Notes: generated by a model from the sequence alone, not told the origin. A DNA stretch of 42,388 bases from Gemmatimonadales bacterium (GCA_013813435.1 JACCRS010000103.1:1-42388), one strand, 5' to 3'. Shown: positions 5,102-33,633, numbered from the stretch's first letter. Numbers and translations are program-made.

Positions 5102-5199
5102 CTATGAGCTATGAGATCTGAGCTATGAGCTGGCATTGCCCCCCGACGCCACAAGCTACAAGCTACACTGTAATAGCCAATAGCTAATAGCTAACAGCC
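5102..5199. repeat. Heptamer tandem-repeat element, locus A
   Basis: The left arm repeats GAGCTAT/GAGATCT heptamers (5102-5130). The right arm repeats CAAGCTA and then TAATAGC/CAATAGC heptamers (5151-5199), in inverted sense relative to the left. It fills most of the 146-base gap between divergent genes. The pattern is the same as at loci B-H, with a different heptamer sequence. Confidence 0.7.
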
Positions 5200-5229
5200 A
5201 CAGCCCCCACCCTCCGGAGGCCGCCGCAT

Positions 5230-5595
5230 ATGGAGCCCCTGTTTCTCGCCATCGGTCTGGCCGCTGGAGTTCTGTCCGGCTTGTTCGGGATAGGTGGGGG
5301 GATCCTGATCATCCCCTCGCTCATCTTCTTCGCGGCCTTCCCCACCAAGCTGGCGCTGGGCACGTCACTCGGCGCGATGCTGCTCCCGGTTGGCCTGTTG
5401 GGCGCGTACGCCTACCACCAGGCCGGCAACCTCAACATCAAGGCCTCGGTGTTCATCTCGCTGGGGCTTTTCCTGGGAGCTTTCGTCGGCGCCAAGCTCG
5501 CCCATGCAATCCCCGGTGCAATCCTTCAGAGGATGTTCGCGGTGTTCATCGTGCTCATGGCCATCCGGCTTTGGGTCGAAGCGGGGAAGAGCTGA
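5230..5595 (+). CDS. Half-size TauE/SafE (TSUP) family membrane transporter
   Basis: A 121-residue membrane protein with the TSUP signature GLFGIGGGILIIPSL near the N-terminus and about four membrane segments. TSUP proteins export sulfite or other sulfonate-type anions and are usually about 250 residues with two related halves; this one is a single half and would need to dimerise. GGAGG, inside the palindrome CCTCCGGAGG, lies 9 bases before the ATG. The stop codon overlaps the next start (TGATG), so the PEBP gene is translationally coupled. The substrate cannot be told from sequence. Confidence 0.85.
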   Translation: MEPLFLAIGLAAGVLSGLFGIGGGILIIPSLIFFAAFPTKLALGTSLGAMLLPVGLLGAYAYHQAGNLNIKASVFISLGLFLGAFVGAKLAHAIPGAILQRMFAVFIVLMAIRLWVEAGKS

Positions 5596-6086
5596 TGGCC
5601 GGACCCGGAGGTGGTGGTGCCCAGATCCAGTTGACATCGGCTGCATTCGTCTACGGCGGCAAGATTCCGATCCGGTTCACCTGCGAGGGGGACGATGTTT
5701 CCCCCCCGCTGCAGTGGAGTGGTGCCCCGACCGATACCCGCAGCCTCGCACTGATTTGCGAAGACCCGGACGCGCCCCGCGGCACCTGGGTCCACTGGGT
5801 GCTCTACAATCTGCCGGCGGAAGCGGTGGAGTTGACCCAGGCGGTGCCCCCCCTGGCGGAGACTCCCTCCGGCGCGCGACACGGACGCAACACCGCTGGC
5901 GACATGGCGTACGCCGGCCCCTGCCCGCCTCCGGGAGAGCCGCACCGCTACTTCTTTCGACTGTACGCCCTCGACATCGCCCTCGGCCTGGCCCCCGGCG
6001 CCAGCCGGGCCGAGTTGGAGCAGGCCATGGATCAGCACATCCTGGCGCAGGGAACACTGATGGGGACGTATCAGCATCGGCCGTGA
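5595..6086 (+). CDS. YbhB/YbcL family Raf kinase inhibitor-like (PEBP) protein
   Basis: A 163-residue phosphatidylethanolamine-binding-protein fold. The diagnostic DPDAPRGTWVHWVLYN (about residues 56-71) and YFFRLYALD are present, and the length matches the bacterial family. I chose the ATG at 5595, overlapping the upstream stop as TGATG, over the track start at 5571, which would begin inside the TauE/SafE gene. Bacterial PEBPs bind anionic small ligands, but their cellular role is poorly known. The TGA stop at 6084 lies at the first base of repeat locus B. Confidence 0.9.
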   Translation: MAGPGGGGAQIQLTSAAFVYGGKIPIRFTCEGDDVSPPLQWSGAPTDTRSLALICEDPDAPRGTWVHWVLYNLPAEAVELTQAVPPLAETPSGARHGRNTAGDMAYAGPCPPPGEPHRYFFRLYALDIALGLAPGASRAELEQAMDQHILAQGTLMGTYQHRP

Positions 6087-6320
6087 GGGAAGAAGCGTGA
6101 GCGGGAAAAGAAAAGCGTAAGCGGGAACTGCTAAAAGCGAGAGCGGGGCAGCGGGGCAGCAGCCACGTGTCATCCTGAGAAAAACGAAGGATCTAGTTCG
6201 AGTACCCAAGGAGATCACATTCGAAGCATGGCTGCGGTCCCCTCCCCTTCGCTGCGCTCAGGGTCAGGGTGACAAGCGGCTTTTTACTGCCCGCTCCCCG
6301 CTGCCCCGCCTAGCTTTCAC
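6082..6320. repeat. Composite repeat element, locus B
   Basis: The left arm (6082-6162) contains GCGTGAGCGGG and GCGTAAGCGGG units and a GCGGGGCA tandem. Next is a core GTCATCCTGAG...CGAAGGATCT (6169-6194), then a second core copy in inverted orientation (about 6244-6273; reverse complement begins GTCACCCTGA). The right arm (6284-6318) is the inverted equivalent of the left (CCCGCTCCCCGCTGCCCCGCC). The element fills the whole PEBP-exonuclease gap, from stop codon to 4 bases before the next ATG. Confidence 0.75.
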
Positions 6321-6321
6321 C

Positions 6322-7338
6322 ATGCTTACGCTCACCAGCAGTGGTCTGTATTGCCAGGCCGGCGACTTCTTCATCGACCCCTGGGAACCGGTAGATCGCG
6401 CCGTCATCACCCACGCCCACGGCGACCATGCCACCTGGGGCTCGCGGGCGTACCTCACCTCCAGGACGGGGCTTGGCGTCCTGCGCGCACGGCTGGAGCC
6501 CGGAGCCTGCATCCAGGCCGCCGAGTACGGCGAGCAGGTCGTGCTCGGCAGCACCACCATCCGCCTTCACCCTGCCGGCCACATCCTGGGCTCCTCCCAG
6601 GTTCGCATCGAGCACGCCGGGGAAATCTGGGTGGTATCCGGCGACTACAAGACCGATCCGGATCCGACCTGCACCCCGTTCGAGCCGGTCCGCTGCCACA
6701 CCTTCGTGACCGAGTCCACCTTCGGTCTGCCGATCTACCGCTGGCCCAGCCAGGAGCAGGTCTTCTCCGAGATCAACTCCTGGTGGCGAGCCAATGCAGC
6801 CGCGGGAAAGACCAGCCTTCTGCTGGGCTACGCCCTGGGGAAGGCCCAGCGTCTGCTGGCTGGACTCGATGCCGGTATCGGCCCGATCCTCACCCACGGC
6901 GCGGTGGAGCGCATGACGTCACTGTATCGCGAGGGCGGCGTCGAGCTCCCGGCTACCCACTACGCGGGGGCAGCCGACAGCCGGGCCGATGCCACCGGCG
7001 CCATAGTCATCGCACCCCCGTATGCCGATGCGTCGATCTGGTCGCGCCGCTTTGGTGACCATTCCACCGGTTTCGCCTCGGGATGGATGATGGTTCGCGG
7101 CGCGAGGCGGCAGCGGTCGCTCGACCGCGGCTTTGCCCTCTCTGATCACGTGGACTGGCCTGGCCTGCTGGCAGCCATCGAGGCCACCGGGGCGGGAGAG
7201 GTATGGGTGACCCACGGCTACACCGGCCCGGTGGTGCGCTGGCTGAAAGAGCGCGGCCTCGACGCTCGGGCAATAGCAACCAGGTTCGAAGGTGAAAGGG
7301 CCGAAGTGACCGAGACTTCAGAAGACCCGCACCTATGA
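6322..7338 (+). CDS. Ligase-associated DNA exonuclease (metallo-beta-lactamase fold)
   Basis: A 338-residue MBL/beta-CASP-type nuclease of the kind encoded next to a bacterial ATP-dependent DNA ligase. The metal site motif ITHAHGDHATWG is at about residues 32-43; HPAGHILGSSQ and a late DHVDW histidine are further family landmarks. It is expected to trim DNA ends for the downstream ligase. Its last codons overlap the ligase start by 4 bases (ATGA), so the two are coupled. There is no clear Shine-Dalgarno: the start follows a pyrimidine-rich arm of repeat locus B. Confidence 0.92.
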   Translation: MLTLTSSGLYCQAGDFFIDPWEPVDRAVITHAHGDHATWGSRAYLTSRTGLGVLRARLEPGACIQAAEYGEQVVLGSTTIRLHPAGHILGSSQVRIEHAGEIWVVSGDYKTDPDPTCTPFEPVRCHTFVTESTFGLPIYRWPSQEQVFSEINSWWRANAAAGKTSLLLGYALGKAQRLLAGLDAGIGPILTHGAVERMTSLYREGGVELPATHYAGAADSRADATGAIVIAPPYADASIWSRRFGDHSTGFASGWMMVRGARRQRSLDRGFALSDHVDWPGLLAAIEATGAGEVWVTHGYTGPVVRWLKERGLDARAIATRFEGERAEVTETSEDPHL

Positions 7339-8942
7339 AAGCCTTCGCTCGCCTCTACACCGCCCTCGATGAGACCACGTCCACCAGCGCAAAGGTTGCG
7401 GCGCTGGTGGCGTACTTCTCGAGCGCTCCGCCTTCCGACGCTGCCTGGGTGGTGCACTTCCTCAGCGGCCGCAGGCCTAAGCGCCTGGTTTCCTCCGGGC
7501 GGCTGCGAGCCTGGGCGGCGCAGGAGGCCGGCATCCCGGACTGGCTCTTCGAGGAGAGCTACCATGCGGTGGGCGATCTGGCCGAGGCGATTACGCTGGT
7601 GCTGCCTGCAACCGGCACTTCCAGCGAGCTGCCGCTCTCGCACTGGGTAGAGGAGCGGCTCCTTCGCCTCCGGGGCGAGGATGACGACGTCCAGCGCGAG
7701 GTGATGATCCAGAGCTGGCGCGAGCTCGACACCCACGAGCGGTTCGTCTGGAACAAGCTGATCACCGGAAGCTTTCGGGTCGGCGCCTCACAGCAGCTCG
7801 TCACCCGTGCCCTGGGGGAGAGGAGCGGCGTTCCCGAAGGGGTGCTCTCCCACCGGCTCATGGGAGCCTGGGAACCAACTCCGGAGTTCTTTCAGCGGCT
7901 CACCGCCGCGGACACCAGCGATGCCGATATCAGCCGGCCTTACCCGTTCTTTCTGGCTCACCCGCTCGAAGCTGATCCGGCCACACTCGGGGAGGCCGAT
8001 GAGTGGATCGTGGAATGGAAGTGGGATGGGATAAGAGCCCAGCTCATCCGGCGAGCGGGCCGCACGTTTCTCTGGTCTCGAGGTGAGGAGCTGCTGGCGG
8101 GGCGATTCCCCGAAATCGAGGAGAGCGGCGCTCTCCTGCCCGACGGAACCGCGATCGACGGCGAGCTTCTGCCCTGGGCCGAGGGCGCTCCGCTGCCGTT
8201 TGCCCAACTCCAGCGGCGGATCGGACGCAAGATCGTGGGCCGGAAGATCCTGGAGGACGTGCCGGTGGTGCTCGTCGCCTACGATCTGCTGGAGGAGTCC
8301 GGCGTAGACCTCCGTACGCTTCCGCTTAGCCAGCGGCGGAACCGTCTGACGGCTCTGCTGCAGTCGCTGGCGCCCGGCCGGCTGATTCTGTCCCCCGCCG
8401 TGCCGTCCCCTGATTGGGAGACGGTCGCGACTGCTCGCGAGGCGGCGCGGGGCCTGGGAGCCGAGGGAGTCATGCTCAAGCGGGTGGCTTCGGCGTATGG
8501 GGTGGGGCGGCGCCGCGGCGACTGGTGGAAGTGGAAGGTAGATCCGCTCACCGTAGACGCGGTGCTCATCTACGCCCAGCCCGGGAGCGGCAAGCGCGCC
8601 GGCCTGTTTACTGACTACACCTTCGGCATCTGGGAGGGAGACCACCTGGTGCCGTTCGCCAAAGCGTATAGCGGTCTCACTGATCAGGAGATCCGGAAGG
8701 TGGACGCCTTCGTCCGCCGCAACACCCTGGAAAAGTTCGGCCCGGTTCGGACGGTGAAACCCGAGCTGGTGTTCGAGCTGGCGTTCGAGGGGATCCAGCG
8801 CTCCAGCCGGCACAAGTCGGGCATCGCGGTGCGGTTTCCCCGCATGGCGCGGTGGAGGACGGACAAGAAGGCAGAGGAGGCCGATACGATTGAGCGAGTG
8901 CGGGAGCTGCTGGACAGCGTGAGCGGGAGAGAAAAAGCGTGA
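7335..8942 (+). CDS. ATP-dependent DNA ligase of the ligase-associated repair cluster
   Basis: A 535-residue ATP-dependent DNA ligase with an N-terminal helical DNA-binding domain (1-200), an adenylation domain with the nucleotidyl-lysine motif EWKWDGIR (K229), further ligase motifs such as GEELLAGRFPEI and AEGVMLKR, and a C-terminal OB-fold (KFGPVRTVKPELVFELAF). It seals nicks using ATP. The partners exonuclease, DEXH helicase and PdeM are all in this window. The C-terminus SGREKA is encoded by the first bases of repeat locus C, so the tail is probably not conserved in relatives. Confidence 0.94.
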   Translation: MKAFARLYTALDETTSTSAKVAALVAYFSSAPPSDAAWVVHFLSGRRPKRLVSSGRLRAWAAQEAGIPDWLFEESYHAVGDLAEAITLVLPATGTSSELPLSHWVEERLLRLRGEDDDVQREVMIQSWRELDTHERFVWNKLITGSFRVGASQQLVTRALGERSGVPEGVLSHRLMGAWEPTPEFFQRLTAADTSDADISRPYPFFLAHPLEADPATLGEADEWIVEWKWDGIRAQLIRRAGRTFLWSRGEELLAGRFPEIEESGALLPDGTAIDGELLPWAEGAPLPFAQLQRRIGRKIVGRKILEDVPVVLVAYDLLEESGVDLRTLPLSQRRNRLTALLQSLAPGRLILSPAVPSPDWETVATAREAARGLGAEGVMLKRVASAYGVGRRRGDWWKWKVDPLTVDAVLIYAQPGSGKRAGLFTDYTFGIWEGDHLVPFAKAYSGLTDQEIRKVDAFVRRNTLEKFGPVRTVKPELVFELAFEGIQRSSRHKSGIAVRFPRMARWRTDKKAEEADTIERVRELLDSVSGREKA

Positions 8943-9010
8943 GCAGTCAGCACTCGCGCGTCATCCCGAGCCTTTCGCCTGCGCTCAGGGCAGCATCCGC
9001 GAAGGGCCCG
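8919..9010. repeat. Repeat element, locus C
   Basis: GCGTGAGCGGGAGAG and GCGTGAGCAGT units start inside the last codons of the ligase gene. They are followed by a core copy (GTCATCCCGAG at 8959 onward) and inverted core-like bases (GCGCTCAGGGCAGC). I see no matching right arm. Confidence 0.55.
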
Positions 9011-9031
9011 AAACTCGAGGTGGAGGCTACC

Positions 9032-9058
9032 TTGATATCAGAGCGTTTTGATTAACTA
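9032..9058 (+). promoter_or_regulatory. Possible promoter before the alcohol dehydrogenase gene
   Basis: This is the only AT-rich patch between the repeat and the ADH gene. It carries TTGATA (9032-9037) and TAACTA (9053-9058) with a 15-base spacer, short of the ideal 17. It would allow the inserted ADH gene to be expressed separately from the ligase. Weak evidence. Confidence 0.25.
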
Positions 9059-9072
9059 CTAGGGAGTTCACG

Positions 9073-10194
9073 ATGACTACCGTCAAGGAAATGCAGAGAA
9101 AGCCGGATTCGGCGTCGCCGTCACGGATCGCCGCGCTAGGATATGCCGCCCAGAGCCCGACTTCGCCGTTGGCGCCGTTCCGGTTCGAACGCAGGGAACC
9201 CGGTCCGCGAGACGTCCAGATCGAGATCCAATACTGCGGTGTGTGTCACTCCGATCTGCACACGGTCCGCAACGAGTGGAAGGGTACTGTTTATCCCGTC
9301 GTGCCCGGGCACGAGATCATAGGACGGGTGACCCAGGTCGGTAAGGAGGTGAAGGACTTCAAGGCCGGGGACCTCGCCGGCGTCGGCTGCCTGGTGGACT
9401 CGTGTCGCACTTGCGCCAGCTGCCGGGAAAACCTGGAGCAGTACTGCGACGTCGGATTCACCCTTACGTACAACAGTCCCGATCCCCACACCGGCGGCGT
9501 CACCTACGGCGGGTATTCCAACCGGATCGTGGTGGACCAGCATTTCGTCCTCCGGATCCCGGAAAAGCTGAACCCTGCCGCGGCCGCGCCCCTGCTCTGC
9601 GCCGGGGTCACCACCTATTCGCCGCTGCGCCATTGGGGGGTCGGCCCCGGCCACAAGGTCGGCATCGTGGGTCTCGGCGGTCTGGGCCACATGGGAGTGA
9701 AGTTCGCCCGCGCCTTCGGCGCCGAGGTGGTGCTTTTCACCACCTCTCCCGGGAAGACCGAGGACGCCAGGCGCCTGGGCGCGCACGAGGTCGTCATCTC
9801 CCGGGACCCGGCGGCGATGGCGGCGCACGCCAACAGCTTCGACTTTATCCTCAACACCGTCGCGGCCTCGCATAACCTCGACCCGTTCATCAACATGCTC
9901 AAGCGCGACGGCACCCTTTGCCTGGTCGGCGCGCCGGAAACTCCGCATCCCTCGCCCGGAGTGCTCGGCCTGATCTTCCGCCGCCGCCGGCTGGCCGGCT
10001 CGCTCATCGGTGGCCTCAAGGAGACTCAGGAGATGCTCGACTTTTGTGGCCAGCACGGAATCGTGTCTGACATCGAGATGATCCCGATCCAGGGGATTAA
10101 CGAGGCCTACGAGAGGATGCTCAAGAGCGACGTGAAGTACCGGTTTGTTATCGACATGGGCTCGCTGGCCAAGGACGAAAGGCGTGAGCGGTAA
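9073..10194 (+). CDS. Zinc-dependent NAD(P)H alcohol dehydrogenase, cinnamyl-alcohol-dehydrogenase type
   Basis: A 373-residue medium-chain dehydrogenase. GVCHSDLH carries the catalytic zinc cysteine and GHEIIGRV the GHE motif. The four-cysteine structural zinc loop lies in the CLVDSCRTCASCRENLEQYC region, and the cofactor-binding motif GLGGLGHMG is in the Rossmann domain. It resembles broad-range aldehyde reductases of the YahK/CAD group. The start is supported by GGGAG about 7 bases upstream. The gene sits between the ligase and helicase of the repair cluster and has no obvious link to DNA repair. The last residues (RRER) are encoded by repeat locus D. Confidence 0.92.
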   Translation: MTTVKEMQRKPDSASPSRIAALGYAAQSPTSPLAPFRFERREPGPRDVQIEIQYCGVCHSDLHTVRNEWKGTVYPVVPGHEIIGRVTQVGKEVKDFKAGDLAGVGCLVDSCRTCASCRENLEQYCDVGFTLTYNSPDPHTGGVTYGGYSNRIVVDQHFVLRIPEKLNPAAAAPLLCAGVTTYSPLRHWGVGPGHKVGIVGLGGLGHMGVKFARAFGAEVVLFTTSPGKTEDARRLGAHEVVISRDPAAMAAHANSFDFILNTVAASHNLDPFINMLKRDGTLCLVGAPETPHPSPGVLGLIFRRRRLAGSLIGGLKETQEMLDFCGQHGIVSDIEMIPIQGINEAYERMLKSDVKYRFVIDMGSLAKDERRER

Positions 10195-10389
10195 ACGGTG
10201 AAGAGAGGGTTCCGGTTGTCAGTCCGAGCGTAGTGGGGAATCGGCCCGGGTTACCTCGGGACTGATCGGTGTGGAAACGTGAACCCACCCGGTCCCTCGC
10301 TCCGCACGGGATGACTCGCGAGTGCTGAGGACGACAACACCGCTCACCGCTCACGCTTTCTGCAGTTCCCGCTCACGCTTTACCTTTCT
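10182..10389. repeat. Composite repeat element, locus D
   Basis: The left arm GGCGTGAGCGGTAAACGGTG begins inside the ADH stop region. Two core copies in inverted orientation follow (10218-10242 GTCAGTCCGAGCG...GGGAATC; 10291-10315, reverse complement GTCATCCCGTGCGGAGCGAGG). The right arm is ACCGCTCACCGCTCACGC plus TTCCCGCTCACGCTTTACC (10338-10387). The arrangement matches locus B and spans from the stop codon of one gene to 3 bases before the start of the next. Confidence 0.72.
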
Positions 10390-10392
10390 ACC

Positions 10393-11229
10393 ATGAAATT
10401 CATCTGCGTCGGCTGCGGCGTTCAGCACGCCGAGTCGGCGGTCCCACCCGGGCGCTGCGCCATCTGCGAGGATCAGCGGCAGTATGTCGGGCCTGGCGGC
10501 CAGAGGTGGACAGCGCTTAAGGAGCTGCAGGCGACCCACAAGAATCAGCTCGATGTCGAGGGGCCAGAGCTCATCAGCATTTCGACCGAGCCGAAGTTCG
10601 CCATCGGGCAGCGGGCGCTACACCTGCGCACCGCCGCAGGTAACATCCTCTGGGACTGCATCAGCCTGATCGACGACCGGAGCGTCGGCGCGGTGCAGGC
10701 GCTCGGCGGCGTGTCGGCCATCGCCATCTCCCATCCGCACTACTACTCCTCGATGGTGGAGTGGAGCCGGGCGCTGGGGGATGTCCCGATCTATCTCCAC
10801 GCCGCCGACGGGGAGTGGGTGATGCGGCCCCATCCCGCCATCGTCTTCTGGCAGGGTGATAACCACCAGCTGGCGCCCGGGCTCACGCTGATCCGCTGCG
10901 GCGGCCACTTCCCCGGTGGCACCGTGCTCCACTGGGCCGGAGGGGCGGGCGGTAAGGGGGCGCTGCTCACCGGGGACGTGATCCAGGTGGGGCAGGACCG
11001 GAAGACGGTGAGCTTCATGTACAGCTACCCGAACTACATCCCGGTGAGCGCCAGGACGGTACGGGAGATCGTGGCGGCGGTCGAGCCCTTCGAGTTCGAT
11101 CACATCTACGGGGCCTGGTTTGGGCAGAACATTCTCAGCAATGCCAAGCAGGCACTCCGCTACTCGGCGGACCGCTACATCGCCGCGATAACAGACGCAG
11201 ATCAGCCTGAAGCCAGAGTGTCACCCTGA
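10393..11229 (+). CDS. Metallo-beta-lactamase fold hydrolase with N-terminal zinc ribbon
   Basis: A 278-residue protein. Residues 1-30 hold a CVGC...CAIC zinc-ribbon-like pair (C5, C8, C22, C25). The rest is an MBL fold in which the usual HxHxDH is replaced by ISHPHYYSSMVEW, followed by a conserved GGHFPGG and LLTGDVIQV. The canonical fourth and sixth motif residues are missing, so the metal site is either mononuclear or remodelled. I recall similar MBL proteins in many bacteria and plants, without a firm function. It lies within the split repair cluster, 105-117 bases before the helicase. The stop codon (CCC TGA) is inside a core repeat. Confidence 0.82.
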   Translation: MKFICVGCGVQHAESAVPPGRCAICEDQRQYVGPGGQRWTALKELQATHKNQLDVEGPELISISTEPKFAIGQRALHLRTAAGNILWDCISLIDDRSVGAVQALGGVSAIAISHPHYYSSMVEWSRALGDVPIYLHAADGEWVMRPHPAIVFWQGDNHQLAPGLTLIRCGGHFPGGTVLHWAGGAGGKGALLTGDVIQVGQDRKTVSFMYSYPNYIPVSARTVREIVAAVEPFEFDHIYGAWFGQNILSNAKQALRYSADRYIAAITDADQPEARVSP

Positions 11230-11265
11230 GCCGTAGCGAAGCGAAGGCGAGGGGACCGAAGCGGG
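11219..11265. repeat. Core repeat copy, locus E
   Basis: GTCACCCTGAGCCGTAGCGAAGCGAAGGCGAGGGG has the same core pattern (GTCA-CCTGAG-GAAGCGAAGG) as loci B, D and H, without heptamer arms. It provides the final SP-stop of the MBL gene. Confidence 0.6.
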
Positions 11266-11346
11266 ATGTGAAGACAACCCCATTCGTGTTTTCGGAGCGG
11301 TTGAAATTCTACCAGCAGTCGTACGTACAACCTGGTGGATCACAGC

Positions 11347-15178: not shown

Positions 15179-15574
15179 ATGAGGTACCTGTGCCTGATCT
15201 ACGAGAACGAGAAAGCCTGGGAGTCGCTGCCGCCTTCGGAGGCGGAGGCGATCATGGGCGAGTACTTCGGCTTTACCGAGCAGATCCGCGGCAATGGCAA
15301 GTTCGTGGCCGGCGAGGCGCTCCAGCCCACCCCCACCGCCACCACCGTCCGGGTTCGGAACGGCAAGATCTCCACCACCGACGGTCCATTCGCCGAGACC
15401 AAGGAGCAGCTGGGGGGGTTCTACCTCATCGAGGCTAAGGACCTGAACGACGCCATTCAGGTGGCTTCCAAAATCCCGTCGGCTCGGGTCGGGTCGATCG
15501 AAGTGCGGCCGGTGATCGATTTCTCGCAGGAGATGGAAAAGAGGGAGCAGGAGGGCGCCGGGGCGAGTGTCTGA
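15179..15574 (+). CDS. YciI/DGPF-domain protein, partner of ECF42 sigma factor
   Basis: A 131-residue YCII-related protein with the signature TDGPFAETKEQLGGFY (about 66-81). Proteins of this DGPF type are characteristically encoded next to ECF42 sigma factors, as here. They have an alpha/beta ferredoxin-like fold and their biochemical role is uncertain. GGGAGGGAGC directly before the ATG is a strong ribosome site and rules out the longer track frame from 15145. Repeat locus F starts 2 bases after the stop codon. Confidence 0.9.
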   Translation: MRYLCLIYENEKAWESLPPSEAEAIMGEYFGFTEQIRGNGKFVAGEALQPTPTATTVRVRNGKISTTDGPFAETKEQLGGFYLIEAKDLNDAIQVASKIPSARVGSIEVRPVIDFSQEMEKREQEGAGASV

Positions 15575-15576
15575 AG

Positions 15577-15643
15577 AGTCGAGGGTCAAGGGTCGAGGGT
15601 CTACTCTTCATGCGCCGTAGACCCTAGACTCTAGACCCTAGAC
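15577..15643. repeat. Heptamer inverted-repeat element, locus F
   Basis: The left arm is GTCGAGG-GTCAAGG-GTCGAGG-GTCTAC and the right arm GTAGA-CCCTAGA-CTCTAGA-CCCTAGAC, separated by 12 bases. The inner GGGTCTAC/GTAGACCC forms an 8-bp stem. The element fills the YciI-sigma gap and has no core. Confidence 0.75.
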
Positions 15644-15653
15644 GTTCCAACGA

Positions 15654-17138: not shown

Positions 17139-17156
17139 CGCTTTCGCGAGCCCGTG

Positions 17157-17184
17157 TTAAGGAACCATAGAACGCTGGTAAAAT
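17157..17184 (+). promoter_or_regulatory. Possible promoter of the HTH regulator gene
   Basis: TTAAGG (17157-17162) and TAAAAT (17179-17184) are separated by 16 bases, in the AT-richest stretch of this neighbourhood. The predicted transcript would have a leader of about 15 bases. The -35 match is poor, so confidence is low. Confidence 0.35.
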
Positions 17185-17206
17185 TCTGTCAACTTTTTTA
17201 CTTTCC

Positions 17207-22006: not shown

Positions 22007-22032
22007 GACGCGTTCCTTGAAGGGGGAAAGGG

Positions 22033-22716: not shown

Positions 22717-22855
22717 GACATGGATAGTACTATGGCCCCGCCGGGTTGGCAGCGGGGGATCGCGGCGCCCCCGGTGTTATTTTGAAGACTTCCAGGCCAA
22801 CAGTAAGGAAACGTGACAGCAATCCACCCAGCAGATCTGCTCGTATAGATGTTGG

Positions 22856-24057: not shown

Positions 24058-24084
24058 CAAAGCGCCGCTGTCGTTTTGCAAAAC

Positions 24085-24113
24085 AAAAACCCGCCGGATG
24101 TCCGGCGGGTTTT
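24085..24113. terminator. Strong bidirectional Rho-independent terminator
   Basis: CCCGCCGGA-TG-TCCGGCGGG is a perfect 9-bp GC stem. It is followed by TTTT on the plus strand and preceded by AAAACAAAAA, which gives a U-run on the minus strand. It separates the anti-sigma gene from the convergent ferritin-like genes and can stop transcription from both sides. Confidence 0.93.
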
Positions 24114-24135
24114 GCTATTCTGACCTCAGCGTAGC

Positions 24136-24897: not shown

Positions 24898-24912
24898 TGG
24901 GTTCGTGGCTCC

Positions 24913-25623: not shown

Positions 25624-25722
25624 CTGCCGACTCCTTAGCCTGTGATGTAAGTGATCCCGGTGCGGACCCTGAAATCCTGTGGGACTACGCCCGGGGCATC
25701 CATTTGGATCTCCAAGTCTTTA

Positions 25723-26844
25723 CTACCGCTGCGCCGACTCCGTCCGCATGCCACCGAAGCCCTTCTGCAGCCCCGCCACAGCCTGTTGCTGCGCCGCCTT
25801 CGCATCATCCAGCACGGGACCCATCCCGAAGAACTCGTGCGCCGCACCGTCATAGTTCCGGTAATCCACATCGACTCCATCATTCCTGAGCGCATCTGAC
25901 AGAGCCTTTCCCTCGGAACGAAGTGGGTCGATCTGCGCCGTAATCACCGTGGCTGAGGGCAGCCGCTGCAGGTCCGCATGCACGAGATCGATGAGGGGGT
26001 TCTTTCCGTCTTCGGGGCTGCGCAGGTACTGGTCGAAGAACCACTGCATCATCGCCTTGTTGAGCGGCTTCGCCTGAGCGTTTTCCTGGTATGACGGAGT
26101 GTTGACGTCATAACCGGCGATGGGATAGACCAGCACCTGGTGCACCGGCATCTGGACGCCGCTGTCCCGCGCCATCATCGCCACTGCGGCCGCGAGGTTG
26201 CCGCCCGCGCTCTCGCCCATCACCGCCACCTTGGATGGATCCCCCTTGAGCGACTTAGCGTTGGCCAGAACCCAGCGGTATGCCGCAAAGGCGTCCTGGT
26301 GCGCGGCGGGGAACTTGTGCTCCGGCCCCTGGCGGTAATTGGCGGAGACCACCACGGCGTTGGCCAGGTTGGTCAGCGCCCGGGGAGAGGCGTCGTAGGT
26401 ATCCAGATCCGCGATGACCCAACCACCGCCATGATAGTAGACCACGACCGGGAATGGTCCGGTGCCCTTGGGGGTATAGATCCGCGCCGCTATCGGACCA
26501 GCCGCACCAGGAATCTTCCGATTGACCACGCTGCCCACCGGCTCCGGCGCCGTGCTCTTGCCCTGTTTCTTCAGCAGCGCCTTCACCGCATCCGCCGGCG
26601 TCGGCTGCTTCCGGGCCTCGGCCGCGGGGAGCTCCGGAATCGGTTTGGGGTTGAGTGCCGCAAGCTCGGTGAGGACAGCCTGCATCTGCTGGTCGGGCGC
26701 GGGTGGGGTGGCCATCGAGGCCTTGCTCGAGTCGGCCATCGCGGTCTCACCGGTGTCGGCCCGTTGGCCACCGGGCGAGCACGCGGCGGCGGCAACCAGG
26801 AGCGCCAGAGAGGTGCCCCGGTGCAGCGCATTCCGTAAATCCAA
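25723..26844 (-). CDS. HSL-family alpha/beta hydrolase (acetyl-esterase type) lipoprotein
   Basis: The track begins at 26901, but a TTG at 26844 has a strong GGAGGAG about 5 bases upstream and gives a normal lipoprotein signal, LDLRNALHRGTSLALLVAAA then C22, so I use 373 residues. Motifs of the hormone-sensitive-lipase class: HGGGW oxyanion loop (138-142), nucleophile S212 in GESAGG, D306 in QIDPLR and H336 in AAHEFF. It is probably anchored in the periplasm or outer membrane and hydrolyses short acyl esters. A 100-base gap separates it from the ferritin-like genes downstream of the shared start side. Confidence 0.9.
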   Translation of the reverse strand: MDLRNALHRGTSLALLVAAAACSPGGQRADTGETAMADSSKASMATPPAPDQQMQAVLTELAALNPKPIPELPAAEARKQPTPADAVKALLKKQGKSTAPEPVGSVVNRKIPGAAGPIAARIYTPKGTGPFPVVVYYHGGGWVIADLDTYDASPRALTNLANAVVVSANYRQGPEHKFPAAHQDAFAAYRWVLANAKSLKGDPSKVAVMGESAGGNLAAAVAMMARDSGVQMPVHQVLVYPIAGYDVNTPSYQENAQAKPLNKAMMQWFFDQYLRSPEDGKNPLIDLVHADLQRLPSATVITAQIDPLRSEGKALSDALRNDGVDVDYRNYDGAAHEFFGMGPVLDDAKAAQQQAVAGLQKGFGGMRTESAQR

Positions 26845-27214
26845 GGATCTCCTCCAACTGAGAGAGACAATCGACCTGATCTGCACCGATAACGCGCGCA
26901 CGCGAAGGGCAGGACTGAGCGACCGGGCCAGGAGCTGGAACTGTGATCAACCCGGCGAGGGGGGTTGCGTAGGACGCGAGCAATAAACCGTGGGACCCAG
27001 CGGTTGTCGGTGACAATTGTCACGAAAAGCGCCGGCAGCAGAATCGACTTTGTGCCACACACAACTAGCTTACAGCGGTACGTCGCCAAGCCGGTTTTGG
27101 ATCTTTATGGGCCAGCGACTGCGTAGATCCAGGAGAGTGCGAGCCCGCGTATCGATGTAACCACCTGACCGGTAGCTGCCATGCGCCGGGCCTTCCCATG
27201 CGGAGCACCTGGAA
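26845..27214. other. Divergent 370-base intergenic region between esterase and FabZ-like genes
   Basis: I see no gene here. It holds the esterase ribosome site (26845-26860), a perfect palindrome at 27010-27023 and presumably both divergent promoters, which I could not place with confidence. Confidence 0.6.
27010..27023. promoter_or_regulatory. Perfect 14-base palindrome, possible operator
   Basis: GTGACAATTGTCAC reads the same on both strands and is partly overlapped by another TTGTC-GGT-GACAA dyad on its left. It lies near the middle of the divergent gap, which is a typical place for a regulator binding site. The regulator is unknown. Confidence 0.45.
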
Positions 27215-27661
27215 ATGACCGACGCCTCGACCCTGCAATCCACTACCAGCCTGATCGATCTCGATCGGACGTATCTGCCGGTGGACCAGATGCGCCAGAT
27301 CACACGAGTGACCGCACTCGAAGCGGCCGGTATCGAGGCCGAAGTGGAACTGGGAGAGGATCACTGGGTGTGGGGGCAACACTTTCCGGGCGATCCGATT
27401 TTCCCGGGCACGCTCATGATCGAGGCAGCCGGCCAGCTGATTGCGCTCTGGGCCTGGAGTGATGGGGCACGAGGGCGCCCGCGATTGGTACGGACCAGCG
27501 CGGAGTTCCACAATCCGGTTGATAGATGGAGTCCCAGGCTGTTACTGAAGGGGGAAATCCGTCGCAAGCGGAATCTGTATTTCGGCAAGGTGGAGATCTC
27601 GGTGGACGAGATGTCGGTGGCGACCGTGGAGGCGGTGCTCGTCATCCTCGCGGCCACCTGA
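27215..27661 (+). CDS. FabA/FabZ-like hotdog dehydratase
   Basis: A 148-residue hotdog-fold protein. GQHFPGDPIFPGTLMIEA carries the FabZ pattern with catalytic His56 and Glu70, so a 3-hydroxyacyl-ACP or related thioester dehydratase is likely. It stands alone, away from other fatty-acid genes, and its role may be in a specialised lipid. It overlaps the start of a broken esterase gene (TGATG). No strong ribosome site is visible (CACCTGGAA before the ATG). Confidence 0.85.
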   Translation: MTDASTLQSTTSLIDLDRTYLPVDQMRQITRVTALEAAGIEAEVELGEDHWVWGQHFPGDPIFPGTLMIEAAGQLIALWAWSDGARGRPRLVRTSAEFHNPVDRWSPRLLLKGEIRRKRNLYFGKVEISVDEMSVATVEAVLVILAAT

Positions 27662-28031
27662 TGACCGAGCACCTCTCTCCTGGATCGCGTCGACCGAAGC
27701 GCCGGCTGGCTCGGAACATCCTGTCCCTCCTGGTTTTCTTCTCCCCTCATTAAGTACCGCAAGCCTAGCGCAGCAGGAAACCGGTTTTCTCAACCGCACC
27801 GTAACCATCAAAGACAAGCCGGTGCGGTATCAGGTCTATGTTCCCTTCGAGCTTACCCGGGAAAAGGAGTGGCCCGTCATCCTGTTTCTTCATGGTGGGG
27901 GTGAGGGCTCGCCGGTCAACTACACCGAGTATCCGGAAGTGGGGCACAACTCCTGGGACCTGGCATTCTCCGACCCAATGCTCTGGCAGTGGCTGTTTCA
28001 ACAGCAGCGGAAGGTCCGTTCAGTTCCCTAG
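27661..28031 (+). pseudogene. Broken secreted esterase/phospholipase gene with frameshift and internal deletion
   Basis: The ATG at 27661 opens a signal-like peptide (RRLARNILSLLVFFSPH) that stops at once. One frame over, the sequence resumes as LSTASLAQQETGFLNRTVTI, then WPVILFLHGGGEG, the N-terminal oxyanion region of a poly-hydroxybutyrate-depolymerase/carboxylesterase-like hydrolase. It jumps straight to the family C-terminus, TEYPEVGHNSWDLAF and LWQWLFQQQRK, with the whole catalytic serine/aspartate middle (over 100 residues) absent. It overlaps the FabZ-like stop, so it was once coupled to it. Confidence 0.8.
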
Positions 28032-28412
28032 CTCGCAGCCTCCCCCGAATTTGCAGACCAGCAGGGTCCCTACCAGCAGTCCTCTCATCGCAAGCCCTAT
28101 TGTTTTCCAGAACCCGGCTGTCGGATTGCCGGCCCGCAGGGAGTCGGCCATCCGACGAGGCATACTCACCCGGCAGTGGTCGCACTCTGGCGATTGGAGG
28201 AACGGCACTCCGCTGAGCGAGTCGGGCGAGACTCGACGGCATGGAGCCGGTGCATCCGCTCCGCCTGCCAGACCTGAACCTGCTGGTGCGCCGGCAGGTT
28301 GGTTGAACGCTCCGGCTCGATACGGCGCCACCCTGCCCCGCATGCCGCCTGCGGCAGGACCAACGCCAGCAGCAGGACCGCTCGCCCAAGGCCGTATTGC
28401 GTCCCCCACCAT
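28020..28412 (-). pseudogene. Small lipoprotein gene with two frameshifts
   Basis: Minus-strand frames join to one credible protein. ATG at 28412 then, if one G is removed from the GGGGG run, MVGTQYGLGRAVLLLALVLP with lipobox QAAC. It continues GWRRIEPERSTNLPAHQQVQ, VWQAERMHRLHAV, and one frame over VSPDSLSGVPFLQSPECDHC, RVSMPRRMADSLRAGNPTAG and FWKTIGLAMRGLLVGTLLVC. This resembles small lipoproteins I associate with Gemmatimonadota. Two single-base changes restore it, so either a young pseudogene or assembly errors. Confidence 0.6.
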
Positions 28413-28500
28413 GACCGGTGACTTTCCTTCGTTCTCCGATCGAGCCCTCATCAACGACGATCGCATGCTCCTCAATCTACCGCTGAAGCTGAGGCATCTA

Positions 28501-29760
28501 ATGTGGGTCTTGCTCGCGCTGGTTGGCGGTGCCGTGCTCGTTCTGGTGGTGGCCAATCTTACCACAAGCGAAAAAAAGATCGAGCAGGAGATCGAGCATC
28601 TCTATTCTGTCGGCGACCCACAGTTCGCCCGCTCGCTGGGTACCCTGCTGGGCCCTGCCATTCTTCCCGCTAACCGGGTCACGGCGCTGGTCAACGGAAA
28701 TCAGATTTTCCCCGCGATCCTTGATGCGATCCGGGGGGCCAAGCGGACCATCACCTTCGAGACTTTCATCTACTGGTCAGGCGCTATCGGTAGGACATTC
28801 GCCCAGGCGTTGATCGAGCGGGCGCGGGCCGGGGTGAAGGTTCACCTGCTGCTCGACTGGGTTGGTACCGGGAAAATGGATGCGGAGGTGATCCGGGAAA
28901 TGGAGCAGGCCGGAGTCGAGGTTGTGAAGTACCACCCGCTCCGCTGGTATAATCTCGGCAGGCTGAACAACCGCACCCACCGAAAACTCCTGGTGGTGGA
29001 CGGTACCGTCGGGTTTACCGGAGGGGTAGGCATAGCCGACAACTGGCTGGGAGATGGCGAGGATCCGGACCACTGGCGGGACTCACACTTCCGGGTGGAA
29101 GGCCCGGTGGTGGCGCAGATGCAGGCCACTTTCATGGACAACTGGATCGAGGAGACGGCGGGCGTGCTCCATGGCGAGGCCTACTTTCCCCCGCTCTCAC
29201 CGGCCGGCACCTACCCTGCGCAGATGTTCATGAGCTCTGCCAGCGAGGCCAGCGAAAGCGTTCGGTTCATGTACCTGCTGTCGATTGCGTCGGCCCGGAA
29301 GAGCGTACGCATCGCGAATGCGTACTTCGTTCCCGATGATCTGGCGGTTGCCACCATGGTAGCTGCACAACGCCGGGGGGTGCAGGTCGAGATCATCGTG
29401 CCGGGGCGCCACATCGACGCAAAGGTCTTGCGCCGGGCATCTCGTTCCCTGTGGGAGCCGCTGCTCGAGGCAGGGGTTGCCATCTACGAATACCAGCCCA
29501 CCATGTTTCACACCAAGGTGATGGTAGTGGACAACATCCTGACATCGGTGGGCTCCACCAACTTCGACAACCGCTCCTTCCGACTCAACGACGAGGCGAA
29601 TCTCAACGTCCTCGATCCGGAATTCGCCGCCGGCCAGGCTCGGCAGTTCGAGGAGGACAAGCAACGCTCGAAGCAGCTCACTCTGGATCAGTGGCGAAGC
29701 CGCCCCTGGCATCAGCGTGCGCTGGAGTGGCTCGCGGGACTTGTCCGGCTGCAGCTGTAG
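28501..29760 (+). CDS. Phospholipase D-type protein, cardiolipin-synthase-like
   Basis: A 419-residue membrane-anchored PLD superfamily enzyme. One N-terminal membrane segment (WVLLALVGGAVLVLVVA) is followed by two HKD motifs, THRKLLVVDG (H160, K162, D167) and FHTKVMVVDN (H337, K339, D344), the latter ending GSTNFDNRSF. It probably makes or remodels cardiolipin or another phospholipid. The track start at 27838 reads through two pseudogenes. I chose ATG 28501, which has GAGG 8 bases upstream and begins directly before the membrane segment; ATG 28411 or 28464 are alternatives. Confidence 0.88.
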   Translation: MWVLLALVGGAVLVLVVANLTTSEKKIEQEIEHLYSVGDPQFARSLGTLLGPAILPANRVTALVNGNQIFPAILDAIRGAKRTITFETFIYWSGAIGRTFAQALIERARAGVKVHLLLDWVGTGKMDAEVIREMEQAGVEVVKYHPLRWYNLGRLNNRTHRKLLVVDGTVGFTGGVGIADNWLGDGEDPDHWRDSHFRVEGPVVAQMQATFMDNWIEETAGVLHGEAYFPPLSPAGTYPAQMFMSSASEASESVRFMYLLSIASARKSVRIANAYFVPDDLAVATMVAAQRRGVQVEIIVPGRHIDAKVLRRASRSLWEPLLEAGVAIYEYQPTMFHTKVMVVDNILTSVGSTNFDNRSFRLNDEANLNVLDPEFAAGQARQFEEDKQRSKQLTLDQWRSRPWHQRALEWLAGLVRLQL

Positions 29761-29836
29761 GGAGTACTCCGGTTCATAGCCGTCCTACGTTAGGCAGAAT
29801 CATCCCTGAGCGGACATTCTCTTTCGCGGGGTTCCC

Positions 29837-30049
29837 ATGTCGGACCACATCTATAAGACCATCGAGCTGGTCGGGTCATCCACCCAGGGTATGGAGGACG
29901 CAGTTCAGAAGGCGGTGTCGAAAGCGGCAGAGACGGTCCGAAACATCCGCTGGTTCCAGTTGCTGGACACGCGGGGACACATCGAAGGCGGACGGGTGGC
30001 GCACTGGCAGGTGACGCTCAAGGTCGGCTTCCGGCTCGACGACGAGTGA
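29837..30049 (+). CDS. Dodecin family protein
   Basis: A 70-residue dodecin: [29 protein letters not shown] and [17 protein letters not shown] match the family along the full length. Dodecins form 12-mers that store or buffer flavin or CoA; the conserved tryptophan in the RNIRWF strand is the flavin-stacking position in flavin-binding forms. Lies 76 bases after the PLD gene and 61 bases before the MOSC gene on the same strand. Confidence 0.93.
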
Positions 30050-30110
30050 CTGTAGCTTGGGACATGTTCACCACAGAATCGCCCGCTTGCGATAACCGGG
30101 AGAGGTGCCA

Positions 30111-30557
30111 ATGGAAGGCGTGCTCGAACGCATCTGGATCAAGCGCGCTCGTCGCGGCGCGATGGACCGTGTGTCAACCGCGACGATGGTCGCTGGGCGG
30201 GGGCTGGCCGGGAACGCCGATCAGGGGCGCCGCAGGCAGGTGACGCTGATCGAGCAAGAGGTGTGGGAGGAACTCATGCGGCAGCTGGATGCCTCGATAC
30301 CCCCGAATACGCGCCGCGCTAACCTTCTCGTCAGTGGTATTCCGCTGGCCCACTCGCGCGATCGCATTCTTAGGATCGGCTCATGCCTGCTGCGGATCCG
30401 CGGCGAGACCCGACCCTGCGAGCGCATGGACGAAGCCTTGCCGGGGCTCCGCGCGGCCATGCAGGTGGACTGGGGTGGCGGAGTGTTCGCCGAGGTTCTG
30501 GATGGAGGCGAGATTGCGGTGGGTGATGAGGTACGGTGGGAGGGGATGTCACCCTAA
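30111..30557 (+). CDS. MOSC-domain protein
   Basis: A 148-residue MOSC domain protein with the characteristic conserved cysteine in [10 protein letters not shown] (about residue 104) and the [10 protein letters not shown]-terminal loop. MOSC domains bind the molybdenum cofactor or act in sulfur transfer; stand-alone versions are of unclear function. GGGAGAGG 5-6 bases upstream favours ATG 30111 over GTG 30105. The final MSP-stop falls in a core-like repeat (GTCACCCTAAGCGCAG), as in the MBL gene. Confidence 0.9.
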
Positions 30558-30563
30558 GCGCAG
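30548..30563. repeat. Partial core repeat at the MOSC stop codon
   Basis: GTCACCCTAAGCGCAG matches the beginning of the core repeats (GTCACCCTGAGCGCAG) with one change that converts the frame to TAA. It is short, so chance cannot be excluded. Confidence 0.4.
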
Positions 30564-30590
30564 CAATTGTCACCTTGTTTCCTTCGCCCG

Positions 30591-30731
30591 TTACAAAGGC
30601 CTGGTTGACGTTGGCAGCTGGTTGTGGTTGGAAGCCTTCCGGAACATCTCCTTCGCCTTGGCTTGGTTGCCGCTGCCCATATAAGCCTTGGCCATGCTGT
30701 ACAGCACGTAGGGATTCTGCTGATTCGCACT
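30591..30731 (-). pseudogene. C-terminal remnant of a TPR protein
   Basis: The end of this minus frame reads SANQQNPYVLYSMAKAYMGS then GNQAKAKEMFRKASNHNQLP, a typical TPR helix pair of a secreted TPR protein. The sequence upstream in the frame is unrelated and Arg-rich, so only the last repeat survives. Confidence 0.6.
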
Positions 30732-30790
30732 TGACAGACGACCACGCCGCAGATGATGCCGCCTGAGACGTTCGGGGATACTTTCACACC

Positions 30791-30847
30791 ATGTCCGACC
30801 TCCTGGCGGCTCGCTCCCAGATGGCCATGTCACTGGCCTTCCACATC
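30791..30847 (+). pseudogene. N-terminal remnant of cytochrome bd oxidase subunit I
   Basis: The ATG at 30791 opens MSDLLAARSQMAMSLAFHI, which matches the first helix of CydA-type subunits (ARxQMAxSLxFHI). After FHI the match ends abruptly and the frame closes after 43 codons inside the transporter gene. I infer that almost the whole gene was deleted. Confidence 0.6.
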
Positions 30848-30887
30848 GAGGGGATCGCGCCGTCTGATGGCTGGGTGAGTCGTTGTC

Positions 30888-32438
<1,551 letters not shown>

Positions 32439-32454
32439 AGGCAGCTCCTGAGGA

Positions 32455-32570
32455 CGTGAGCGGGAAAGGAAAGGCGTGAGCGGTGAGCGGGAGATGCAAG
32501 ACCGGAAACATCGTCCTGAGGGTGTTCCCGCTTACGTCTTTCTTACCCGCTTACCGCTTACGCTTCTTCA
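32455..32570. repeat. Composite repeat element, locus G
   Basis: The left arm GTGAGCGGGAAAGG, GGCGTGAGCGGTGAGCGGGAG (32455-32492) is followed by a shortened core (TCGTCCTGAGGGTG), then the inverted right arm CCCGCTTACG, ACCCGCTTACCGCTTACGCTT (32527-32570). The right arm includes the stop codon and the last codons (KKRKR) of the DUF1028 gene. Confidence 0.75.
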
Positions 32571-33618
32571 GTACGTCATCCAATACTACCCGGTCGATCT
32601 TTCCGTCCATCCGAACCCGCACGTCGTAGTTCTCCCAGTACATGAAATTCTTCAGCGCTTCCAGGAACGCGGGCGTTGCGGTAGCCTGCTTCTGACTCAG
32701 CCACTTCTCGGACTGGCCGCCCGGCTCCCGCAGGAGAATCGGCTGCAGCTGGGCGACAATGGCCGGGCCGATTGTCAACAGGTCGGCGGGCTCGCTGGGG
32801 AAGAAGTGCAGCTTGTGCAATGCAAGCAGGCGCTCCAGCTCCGCTATCGGATCGGGGGCGTCGTAGACCCGGATATCCACGAATCTGTCGTTGGCGCCCA
32901 GGTAGCCGCCGTTTTTCCGGACGACCAGAAGTGCTGCGGACTGCATCCCGCGCTTATCGCCACCGCCCGCCTGCCCGGCCTTGAGCGCGGCCATAAGCCG
33001 GTCGGCCAGATTGCCTCGGGCCCCCTCGAATGTTTCCGCCAGATTTTTTACCGTCCGGTCTGACACCATGATGTTGGCCTGCGCGGCGTATCCTCGTCCA
33101 ACAATTACCTCGCCCTTCCCGCCCGCCGGTCCGCCGGTGCGGCCGGCAGCCCCCACTCGGCCCCCGGCCCAATCGAATGTCGTCTTACCGGTGAAGCTCG
33201 CTGCGTTTCCCCGGACGTCTACGATCCCGACTTGCCGGTCCTGCAGCATGGTATCGGTGCGCATGATGATCCGGAGCGCTTCTTCCGCGGTGGCACCCTG
33301 GGCTATCAGGTCCAGGCCGCGCTCCCCGTAGGCGGTGTTCCCCAGGCTCTGCGTCGCGACCGCGCCTACTCCGGCCCGGCCCCAGGGCACGATGCCGCCG
33401 ACGTTGGGAAACTTCGACTGAACTGCCACCCCGAGATCACCGGTGACGGAATCGTAGGCTACGATGCTGTAGGTGTGGGCCAGCTTCTGTCCATGGGAGG
33501 GAGCGGCTGTTGGGGATTGGGCAAACAGCGTAGGCGGTGAGCGGTGAGCGGTAAGCACGAGAAAGACTAGCGCTGTCATCCTGAGGGAGAGCGACTGAAG
33601 GATCTGTTTACGTCTCAC
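32551..33618 (-). CDS. DUF1028 family protein, exported, with repeat-encoded termini
   Basis: A 355-residue protein with the DUF1028 domain at about 50-260 (HTYSIVAYDSVTGDLGVAVQ, VATQSLGNTAYGERGL), an Ntn-hydrolase-like fold of unknown activity, then a C-terminal domain. The start GTG at 33618 has GAGAGG 6-8 bases upstream and lies 10 bases after the previous stop. The export signal (MRRKQILQSLSLR, TALVFLVLTA, then LFA-QS cleavage) is written entirely in repeat H sequence, and the C-terminal KKRKR in repeat G. ATG 33579 is an alternative start within the repeat. Confidence 0.87.
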   Translation of the reverse strand: MRRKQILQSLSLRMTALVFLVLTAHRSPPTLFAQSPTAAPSHGQKLAHTYSIVAYDSVTGDLGVAVQSKFPNVGGIVPWGRAGVGAVATQSLGNTAYGERGLDLIAQGATAEEALRIIMRTDTMLQDRQVGIVDVRGNAASFTGKTTFDWAGGRVGAAGRTGGPAGGKGEVIVGRGYAAQANIMVSDRTVKNLAETFEGARGNLADRLMAALKAGQAGGGDKRGMQSAALLVVRKNGGYLGANDRFVDIRVYDAPDPIAELERLLALHKLHFFPSEPADLLTIGPAIVAQLQPILLREPGGQSEKWLSQKQATATPAFLEALKNFMYWENYDVRVRMDGKIDRVVLDDVLKKRKR

Positions 33619-33633
33619 TTCTTACCTCTCACG
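33533..33633. repeat. Composite repeat element, locus H, inside coding sequence
   Basis: Left arm GCGGTGAGCGGTGAGCGGTAAG (33533-33557), core GTCATCCTGAGGGAGAGCGA...GAAGGATCT (33574-33604), right arm TACGTCTCACTTCTTACCTCTCACGG (33608-33633). It extends from the stop codon of the coiled-coil gene through the first 28 codons of the DUF1028 gene. Confidence 0.75.

What the first reader, a model, noticed from the sequence alone, without database searches (positions are those of the whole stretch)
5102..33633. Dispersed heptamer tandem-repeat elements with inverted arms, often around a separate core
Seven intergenic loci (A-D, F-H) carry imperfect tandem 7-mers: GTGAGCG/GTAAGCG, GAGCTAT, GTCGAGG, and inverted arms CCGCTTA, CAAGCTA, TAATAGC, CCCTAGA. 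The sequences differ between families, but the unit length is constantly 7, and in six of the seven loci a second arm is inverted. Loci B, D, G and H place a core (GTCATCCTGAG...CGAAGGATCT, sometimes two inverted copies) between the arms. Heptanucleotide STRR repeats are known in filamentous cyanobacteria; a composite 7-mer-arm plus core element is not one I recognise as described. It could be a mobile, RNA-structured or recombination-generated element. No cognate transposase is in the window.
Basis: partly seen in the sequence, partly recalled or inferred. Interest (0 to 1): 0.82.

Follow-up and report, generated by a model that had tools for sequence, protein, structure and literature searches.

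The report
Inverted 7/8-mer hairpins at gene ends
Short gaps between genes in this soil bacterium often hold a DNA hairpin whose two arms are built of imperfect 7- or 8-letter repeats; in related species the same gap is empty or holds a hairpin of different repeats, and a separate, known type of mobile-looking repeat (a REP) is sometimes nested inside.

Summary
The repeats are real and genome-wide. Intergenic tandem arrays peak at period 7 (47 observed, 1.6 in shuffles) and also at period 8 (30 against 1.7), so the unit is not constantly 7. They form inverted pairs (50, against 6 direct), nearly always with the purine/G-rich arm first, tight against stop codons. Units fall into few families per genome.

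The composite splits into two element classes. The core is a TGTC/CGTC-tagged REP: outward-tag dimers, a stem with compensatory changes, a free GNA triloop position, no linked transposase. Its copy number is unrelated to that of the arms. It lies between arms about ten times more often than random intergenic points do, but such nesting is a minority (8 of 115 core clusters).

Orthologous gaps give the main result. At one convergent gap in 21 related species, the junction between two stop codons is empty, or holds inverted arrays of about seven different units, or an unrelated hairpin. I favour DNA-level hairpin elements, tolerated only between genes, that spread between gene ends and are reshaped by slippage and arm-to-arm template switching. 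The mover is unidentified. Kind: a variant of the paired heptamer repeats of Xanthomonas, with known REPs nested in them.

The parts
5102..5131 (+). Locus A left arm, GAGCTAT-type 7-mer array
   Evidence: absent from the same gap in G006
5148..5200 (-). Locus A right arm, CAAGCTA and TAATAGC 7-mers, inverted to the left arm
6090..6160 (+). Locus B left arm, AGCGTGAGCGGGAAAAGAA-type repeats followed by an 8-mer array AGCGGGGC (6142-6160)
   Evidence: dispersed copies in own genome
6169..6193 (+). Locus B core, TGTC-tagged REP (degenerate loop)
6245..6275 (-). Locus B second, degenerate inverted core copy (CCTTCGCTGCGCTCAGGGTCAGGGTGACA)
6283..6340 (-). Locus B right arm, CCCGCTGC/CCGCTCCC and GCTTACGCTCACC
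8913..8944 (+). Outer left arm AGCGTGAGCGGGA...AAAGCGTGAGC; supplies the stop codon (8940-8942) of the DNA ligase gene
   Evidence: G006 has a simple hairpin of this family here and G008 a plain spacer
8947..8971 (+). REP-like end TCAGCACTCGCGCGTCATCCCGAGC, left member of a 25-nt inverted repeat around the ADH gene
10179..10200 (+). Heptamer arm GGCGTGAGCGGTAAACGGTG at the end of the ADH gene, containing its stop codon (10192-10194)
10304..10328 (-). REP-like end, right member of the 25-nt inverted repeat (92% complementary)
10338..10388 (-). Right arm CACCGCTCACCGCTCACGCTTT...CCCGCTCACGCTTTACC
15574..15601 (+). Locus F left arm, GTCGAGG/GTCAAGG 7-mers, starting at the upstream stop codon
   Evidence: orthologous gap in G006 has GAGTCGC units
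15615..15643 (-). Locus F right arm, TAGACCC 7-mers
   Evidence: DNA fold -20.1 kcal/mol, z -4.3
32455..32495 (+). Locus G left arm, GTGAGCG
   Evidence: same gap filled, empty or REP-filled in other species
32528..32565 (-). Locus G right arm, CCGCTTA; contains the stop codon of the DUF1028 gene (minus strand)
33534..33556 (+). Locus H left arm, GCGGTGA
   Evidence: absent from the same gap in G006
33575..33604 (+). Locus H core, TGTC-tagged REP
33607..33633 (-). Locus H right arm, TTTACGTCTCACTTCTTACCTCTCACGG (degenerate)

Best explanation
Two element classes share the gene-end niche. (1) Arms: DNA hairpin elements of about 50-160 bp whose two arms are inverted, imperfect arrays of a 7- or 8-nt unit, purine/G-rich arm first. 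A genome carries a small pool of unit families. Copies sit at the junction next to a stop codon, where a 7/8-nt insertion breaks no reading frame, and may supply that stop codon. They come and go quickly and can be replaced by another family. Inferred mechanism: hairpins, or their arms, are copied from other loci into gene ends as extruded or single-stranded DNA; the array is then lengthened, shortened and homogenised by replication slippage in 7-8-nt steps and by template switching between the arms, which keeps the arms complementary while the unit drifts and the loop turns over. (2) Core: a TGTC/CGTC-tagged REP, folding as a DNA hairpin with a GNA triloop, amplified independently of the arms and sometimes nested in their loops. 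Shown here: anatomy, statistics, separability, presence/absence and unit switching at orthologous sites. Inferred: the copying and slippage steps. The mover is unknown.
For: Period 7 and 8 excess. Inverted 50 to direct 6; G-rich arm first 38/41 and purine-rich arm first 36/41 independent loci. Few families shared by unlinked loci. Gap J: 4 empty species, 9 with arrays of about 7 units, 3 with an unrelated hairpin, junction exactly between the two stop codons; sister species share a unit. Gap F: both arms changed together between own and G006. Ligase gap: plain spacer in G008, hairpin in G006, hairpin enclosing REP ends and a gene in own. No G-U over A-C bias on the transcribed strand. One loop plus arm shared between two loci of G067. 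Core: compensatory stem changes with almost no T-G pairs, free triloop base, tags-outside dimers 31 of 35.
Against: No transposase or other mover identified. Loops of one family are mostly unrelated, so whole-element copying is shown for one pair only. No target-site duplication was recognised at gap J. In gap J and gap G the unit sometimes resembles native stop-codon sequence (GTGA, GCGGTAA), which a purely local origin also explains. Part of the sample was picked for core or arm hits.
Confidence: 0.5

Rival explanations
1. Purely local origin: 7-8-nt replication slippage at gene ends, starting from stop-codon-proximal sequence and mirrored by fold-back template switching. Copies never move between loci; shared units reflect similar gene ends and mutational bias.
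For: Some units begin with the native stop codon (gap G: AAGCGGTAA then GCGGGTAA; gap J: GTGA on both sides). Loops are mostly unique. Heptamers being favoured by polymerase slippage has been proposed (cited in PMC4692102 and PMC4679880).
Against: Units cluster into far fewer families than expected, and the same family occurs next to unrelated gene ends. Several units in gap J (GGGAGCG, ATCAGCC) have no counterpart in the flanks of empty relatives.
Confidence: 0.27
2. Functional bidirectional terminators or 3'-end stabilisers: a hairpin at the gene end is selected, whatever its sequence.
For: Elements abut stop codons (81% within 15 nt against 65% expected). Gap J is filled in many species by unrelated hairpins. 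T content just 3' of elements is slightly raised, 0.28 against 0.20.
Against: TTTT follows only 7 of 82 ends. In the own genome inverted pairs are not concentrated between convergent genes (1 of 45 gaps, against 16 of 327 tandem and 4 of 50 divergent). No G-U bias on the transcribed strand. Closely related species do without any element at the same site.
Confidence: 0.15
3. The arms plus core form one transposable unit mobilised by a RAYT-like Y1 transposase.
For: The core is a REP with paired copies. Core inside arms is about ten times commoner than at random intergenic points. The window's genome has two Y1_Tnp matches.
Against: G003, G005 and G009, with 227, 153 and 73 cores, have no Y1_Tnp hit. 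The window genome's better Y1_Tnp gene (L041) has no core within its 2.6-kb locus. Arms and core vary independently.
Confidence: 0.05

Closest known systems
GGGAATC and GGGGA(C/T)T heptamer repeats of Xanthomonas and Nostoc (PMC4692102)
   Same: Imperfect 7-mer arrays, dispersed, mainly intergenic, many as inverted convergent pairs (70 of 186 repeats counted as paired cases in X. campestris), within 0-50 bp of or overlapping stop codons, length variable between species at the same gap.
   Different: One G-rich unit family per genome there, interpreted as G-quadruplex; here several families, periods 7 and 8, only 4 of 41 arms with a quadruplex motif, unit switching and empty sites at orthologous gaps.
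CGTC-tagged REPs (PMC3733652), for the core only
   Same: TGTC/CGTC tag in 170 of 186 copies, A-T first stem pairs, tags-outside (HH) dimers, spacing 20-100, no linked transposase; REP dimers inside palindromes reported in three species.
   Different: Tail does not fit CCA; GNA triloop with a free middle base; the paper lists five phyla for CGTC REPs and Gemmatimonadota is not among them.
Heptanucleotide element families of Geobacter metallireducens (PMC2700814)
   Same: Several different 7-mer families dispersed in one genome, in and between genes, some arranged as foldback alignments.
   Different: Described as fixed 4-5-unit regulatory elements; no orthologous unit switching reported in the text read.
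TAACTGA direct repeats of marine Beggiatoaceae (PMC4679880) and cyanobacterial STRR
   Same: Dispersed intergenic 7-mers.
   Different: Essentially one unit and direct rather than inverted arrays in the Beggiatoaceae case.

Membership tests
CGTC-tagged REP (core) | 5' unpaired tag CGTC, often TGTC or CCTC | tested here: met
   T 138 and C 32 of 186 before GTC
CGTC-tagged REP (core) | Stem with complementary A-T in first and second position | tested here: met
   Pair 4-24 A-T in 141/186, pair 5-23 Watson-Crick in 98%
CGTC-tagged REP (core) | Stem of 8-9 bp, loop of 4-5 nt | tested here: inconclusive
   Fold gives 5 pairs, a 2x2 GA/GA internal loop, 2 pairs and a 3-nt loop; how the authors would count this is not known to me
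CGTC-tagged REP (core) | Mostly tags-outside (HH) dimers | tested here: met
   31 of 35 neighbouring pairs, median spacing 38
CGTC-tagged REP (core) | Tail CCA (consensus of most) | tested here: not met
   CCA in 7 of 186; TCA and CAT commonest after GGATC. The paper says most, not all, tails fit it
CGTC-tagged REP (core) | Not linked to transposase genes | tested here: met
RAYT/GTAG REP system | REP copies flank a Y1 transposase gene | tested here: not met
   No core in L041-L044 around Y1_Tnp genes as a tagged copy
Xanthomonas-type paired heptamer repeats (arms) | Period 7, intergenic | tested here: met
   but a period-8 class is equally present
Xanthomonas-type paired heptamer repeats (arms) | Convergent inverted pairs, G-rich arm first | tested here: met
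Xanthomonas-type paired heptamer repeats (arms) | Four G-tracts able to form a quadruplex | tested here: not met
   4 of 41 left arms
Classical MITE | Defined terminal inverted repeats, target-site duplication, parent transposon | tested here: not met
   No constant ends, no duplication recognised at gap J, no parent found; not searched for all transposase families
Known structured RNA (Rfam) | Match to a curated covariance model | tested here: not met
   0 matches over gathering score in the window

The most novel reading that the evidence does not exclude
An unknown activity writes 7-8-nt, purine-strand-first repeats onto both sides of a junction between genes (telomere-like or otherwise templated addition at a break, then joining). 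That would make the two arms complementary by construction, with a fresh loop each time and a few 'templates' per genome.
Probability: 0.06. Interest if true: 0.9.

Novelty: new variant of a known kind. Interest (0 to 1): 0.57.

Why it matters
Heptamer repeats are over-represented in many bacterial genomes, and it is not known why 7 or how a unit spreads. Gap J is a ready natural experiment: same two genes, same stop codons, empty in four species, about seven different units in others, arms always complementary. It shows that the unit sequence is dispensable while the inverted layout is not, and it allows local slippage and spread between loci to be told apart. It also shows that REPs and heptamer hairpins are distinct populations that use, and nest in, the same gene-end niche. 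Composites with A/T-rich arms in viral-collection contigs (L300, L311) suggest that the phenomenon is not confined to these GC-rich genomes.

Tried and rejected
One composite element: rejected as the general rule, since arms and core vary independently, though nesting is enriched.

RAYT as driver: no correlation. Reverse transcriptase as driver: none in the window's genome.

RNA structure: no Rfam match and no G-U bias. G-quadruplex: 4 of 41 arms. Intrinsic terminator: few T runs.

Loops as a conserved mobile body: loops mostly unique apart from REPs and the L211/L212 pair.

Literature look-up of the core by sequence gave only unrelated sequence hits. No paper on such repeats in Gemmatimonadota was found. 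Core dimer in plasmids: no match.

Two family scans failed on coordinates; the window proteins were rerun, the Y1 protein was not.

Full report
WHAT WAS CHECKED. The window is contig C140 of a 2.86-Mb draft genome. Its close relatives are Gemmatimonadales metagenome bins; the nearest found is G006, whose contig C265 has the same length (8,619) as a record of bin TY_FP_2_bin.28. I fetched about 515 kb of the window's own genome and smaller samples of congeners and of genus g32. Genes were called with a dicodon script of my own. Part of the own sample was chosen because it contains core or arm hits, so absolute densities are somewhat inflated; the comparison between periods is not affected.

PERIOD. 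In non-coding DNA of the own genome, tandem arrays peak at period 7 (54; 82 per 100 kb) and period 8 (36; 55 per 100 kb), with echoes at 14, 16, 21 and 24. Coding DNA shows no such peak. Against dinucleotide shuffles of the intergenic pieces the counts are 47 against 1.55 (period 7) and 30 against 1.65 (period 8); periods 5, 9, 10, 11 and 13 are at background, and periods 6 (9) and 12 (8) are slightly raised. Period-7 excess also occurs in G006, G001, G009, the g32 genomes and the phylum sample; G005, G003 and G007 lack it in the stretches sampled.

LAYOUT. Arrays come as inverted pairs, mostly with loops of 2-126 nt: 50 inverted against 6 direct pairs. Of 41 independent loci, 38 have the G-rich and 36 the purine-rich arm first (binomial p 8e-7 for purine). 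Because an inverted repeat reads the same from both strands, this polarity cannot come from replication or transcription direction. The clearest exception is the GTCATCC/GGATGAC family. Elements fill a median 76% of their gap, and their edge lies a median 4 nt from a stop codon. In several cases the stop codon is part of the first unit (8940-8942, 10192-10194, gap G).

FAMILIES. Units in the own genome fall into 6 clusters for 38 period-7 loci (null mean 22, minimum 12) and 3 clusters for 26 period-8 loci (null mean 14.8, minimum 8). A pool of units is therefore shared by unlinked loci. Loops are generally unrelated; one pair in G067 shares loop and arm (L211/L212).

ORTHOLOGOUS GAPS, OWN AGAINST G006. 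Gap F has GTCGAGG/GTCTAGG units in own and GAGTCGC in G006, both arms changed. Gap B has GTGAGCG plus 8-mer plus core in own, and a GGTAAGCG octamer hairpin without core in G006. Gaps A and H are filled only in own, gap I clearly only in G006. The ligase gap is a plain spacer of about 50 bp in G008, a hairpin with a short loop in G006, and in the window the same kind of arms enclose REP ends and a whole ADH gene.

GAP J. This is the convergent gap next to the homologue of 36625-37302. Across 21 species of the same family it is 1-8 bp in four. Nine have inverted arrays: GTGAGCG (two), GTCATCC, GGGAGCG, two 8-mers of the CGGACGG kind, ATCAGCC, and AGACGTC (two). A TAGGGGCGCAGC hairpin fills it in three more; the rest are short or degenerate. 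On a tree of the flanking genes, sister species share the unit while near neighbours differ and empties are interspersed; loops differ even between sisters. Gap G gives a second, sparser example.

CORE. 186 copies share GTCATCCTGAGCGNAGCGAAGGATC. Stem pairs 5-23, 6-22 and 8-20 are 98-99% Watson-Crick with changes on both sides, and only 3 T-G pairs in all; position 14 is A, G, C or T while its neighbours are nearly fixed. The DNA fold places N in a GNA triloop; a single core's folding energy is not exceptional (z -0.8 and -0.1), a dimer's is (z -9.8). That d(GCGNAGC) mini-hairpins are unusually stable as DNA is my own knowledge, not tested. The base before GTC is T or C in 170 of 186, and 31 of 35 neighbouring pairs have tags outside, median spacing 38. 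This fits the CGTC super-family of REPs (PMC3733652) except for the CCA tail. It is patchy in the phylum: 18 of 298 genomes, 104 and 88 copies in two of them. It also occurs in 62 stretches of viral-collection contigs. Copy number does not follow Y1_Tnp.

ARMS AND CORE TOGETHER. G005 has cores without arms; G001, G006 and the g32 samples have arms with few or no cores. Yet arms on both sides are found at 2/25 (own), 1/11 (G009), 5/60 (viral contigs) and 0/19 (G005) core clusters, against 1.2%, 0, 0.6% and 0 at random intergenic points. Viral-contig examples have A/T-rich units such as AGATACA and AATTAAG around the core, again purine-rich first. Nesting of REPs in palindromes has precedent (PMC3733652).

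RNA OR DNA. If the arms were selected as RNA, mismatches on the transcribed strand should favour G-U over A-C. They are 24 and 25. T runs follow 7 of 82 ends, and only 4 of 41 left arms could form a G-quadruplex. I therefore read the constraint as DNA-level, or as a product of the mutational mechanism itself.

INTERPRETATION. The elements behave as a population of DNA hairpins that is tolerated only between genes, gains and loses sites quickly, switches unit family at a site and keeps its arms complementary. Copying between loci plus slippage and arm-to-arm template switching covers these facts best, but the copying step has no identified agent, and a purely local origin explains some sites. 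Prior art (Xanthomonas heptamer pairs, PMC4692102; CGTC REPs, PMC3733652) makes this a new variant of known kinds. The unit switching at fixed sites is the part I have not found described.

Noticed in passing
window 8913-10388: An alcohol-dehydrogenase-like gene (9073-10194) lies between 25-nt inverted REP-like ends (8947-8971 / 10304-10328, 92%) inside heptamer arms. A close homologue was found in only 1 of 9 congeners, elsewhere, and the gene is missing at this site in G006 and G008: it looks like cargo gained between hairpin arms.
   Followed up: partly
window 5571-6322 gap; L011, L012, L019: Several congeners carry an extra reading frame (superoxide-dismutase-like by eye, not tested) between the two genes flanking gap B; the window's genome and G006 have repeat hairpins there instead.
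   Followed up: partly
L185, L189, L192 (gap J): Another dispersed-looking hairpin, GTAGGGGCGCAGCATGCTGCGCCCCTAC, fills the same junction in three species; it begins with GTAG and may be a GTAG-type REP.
   Followed up: no
L300 10136 and 10940, L309, L311, L324: Contigs of the viral collection with the same core and A/T-rich 7-mer arms (AGATACA, AATTAAG, AACTCTC x15); hosts not identified.
   Followed up: partly
L097 3324-3412: A nearly perfect 8-mer array (CGGTACGG)n runs to the end of contig C1 of the window's genome, suggesting that such arrays break this assembly.
   Followed up: no
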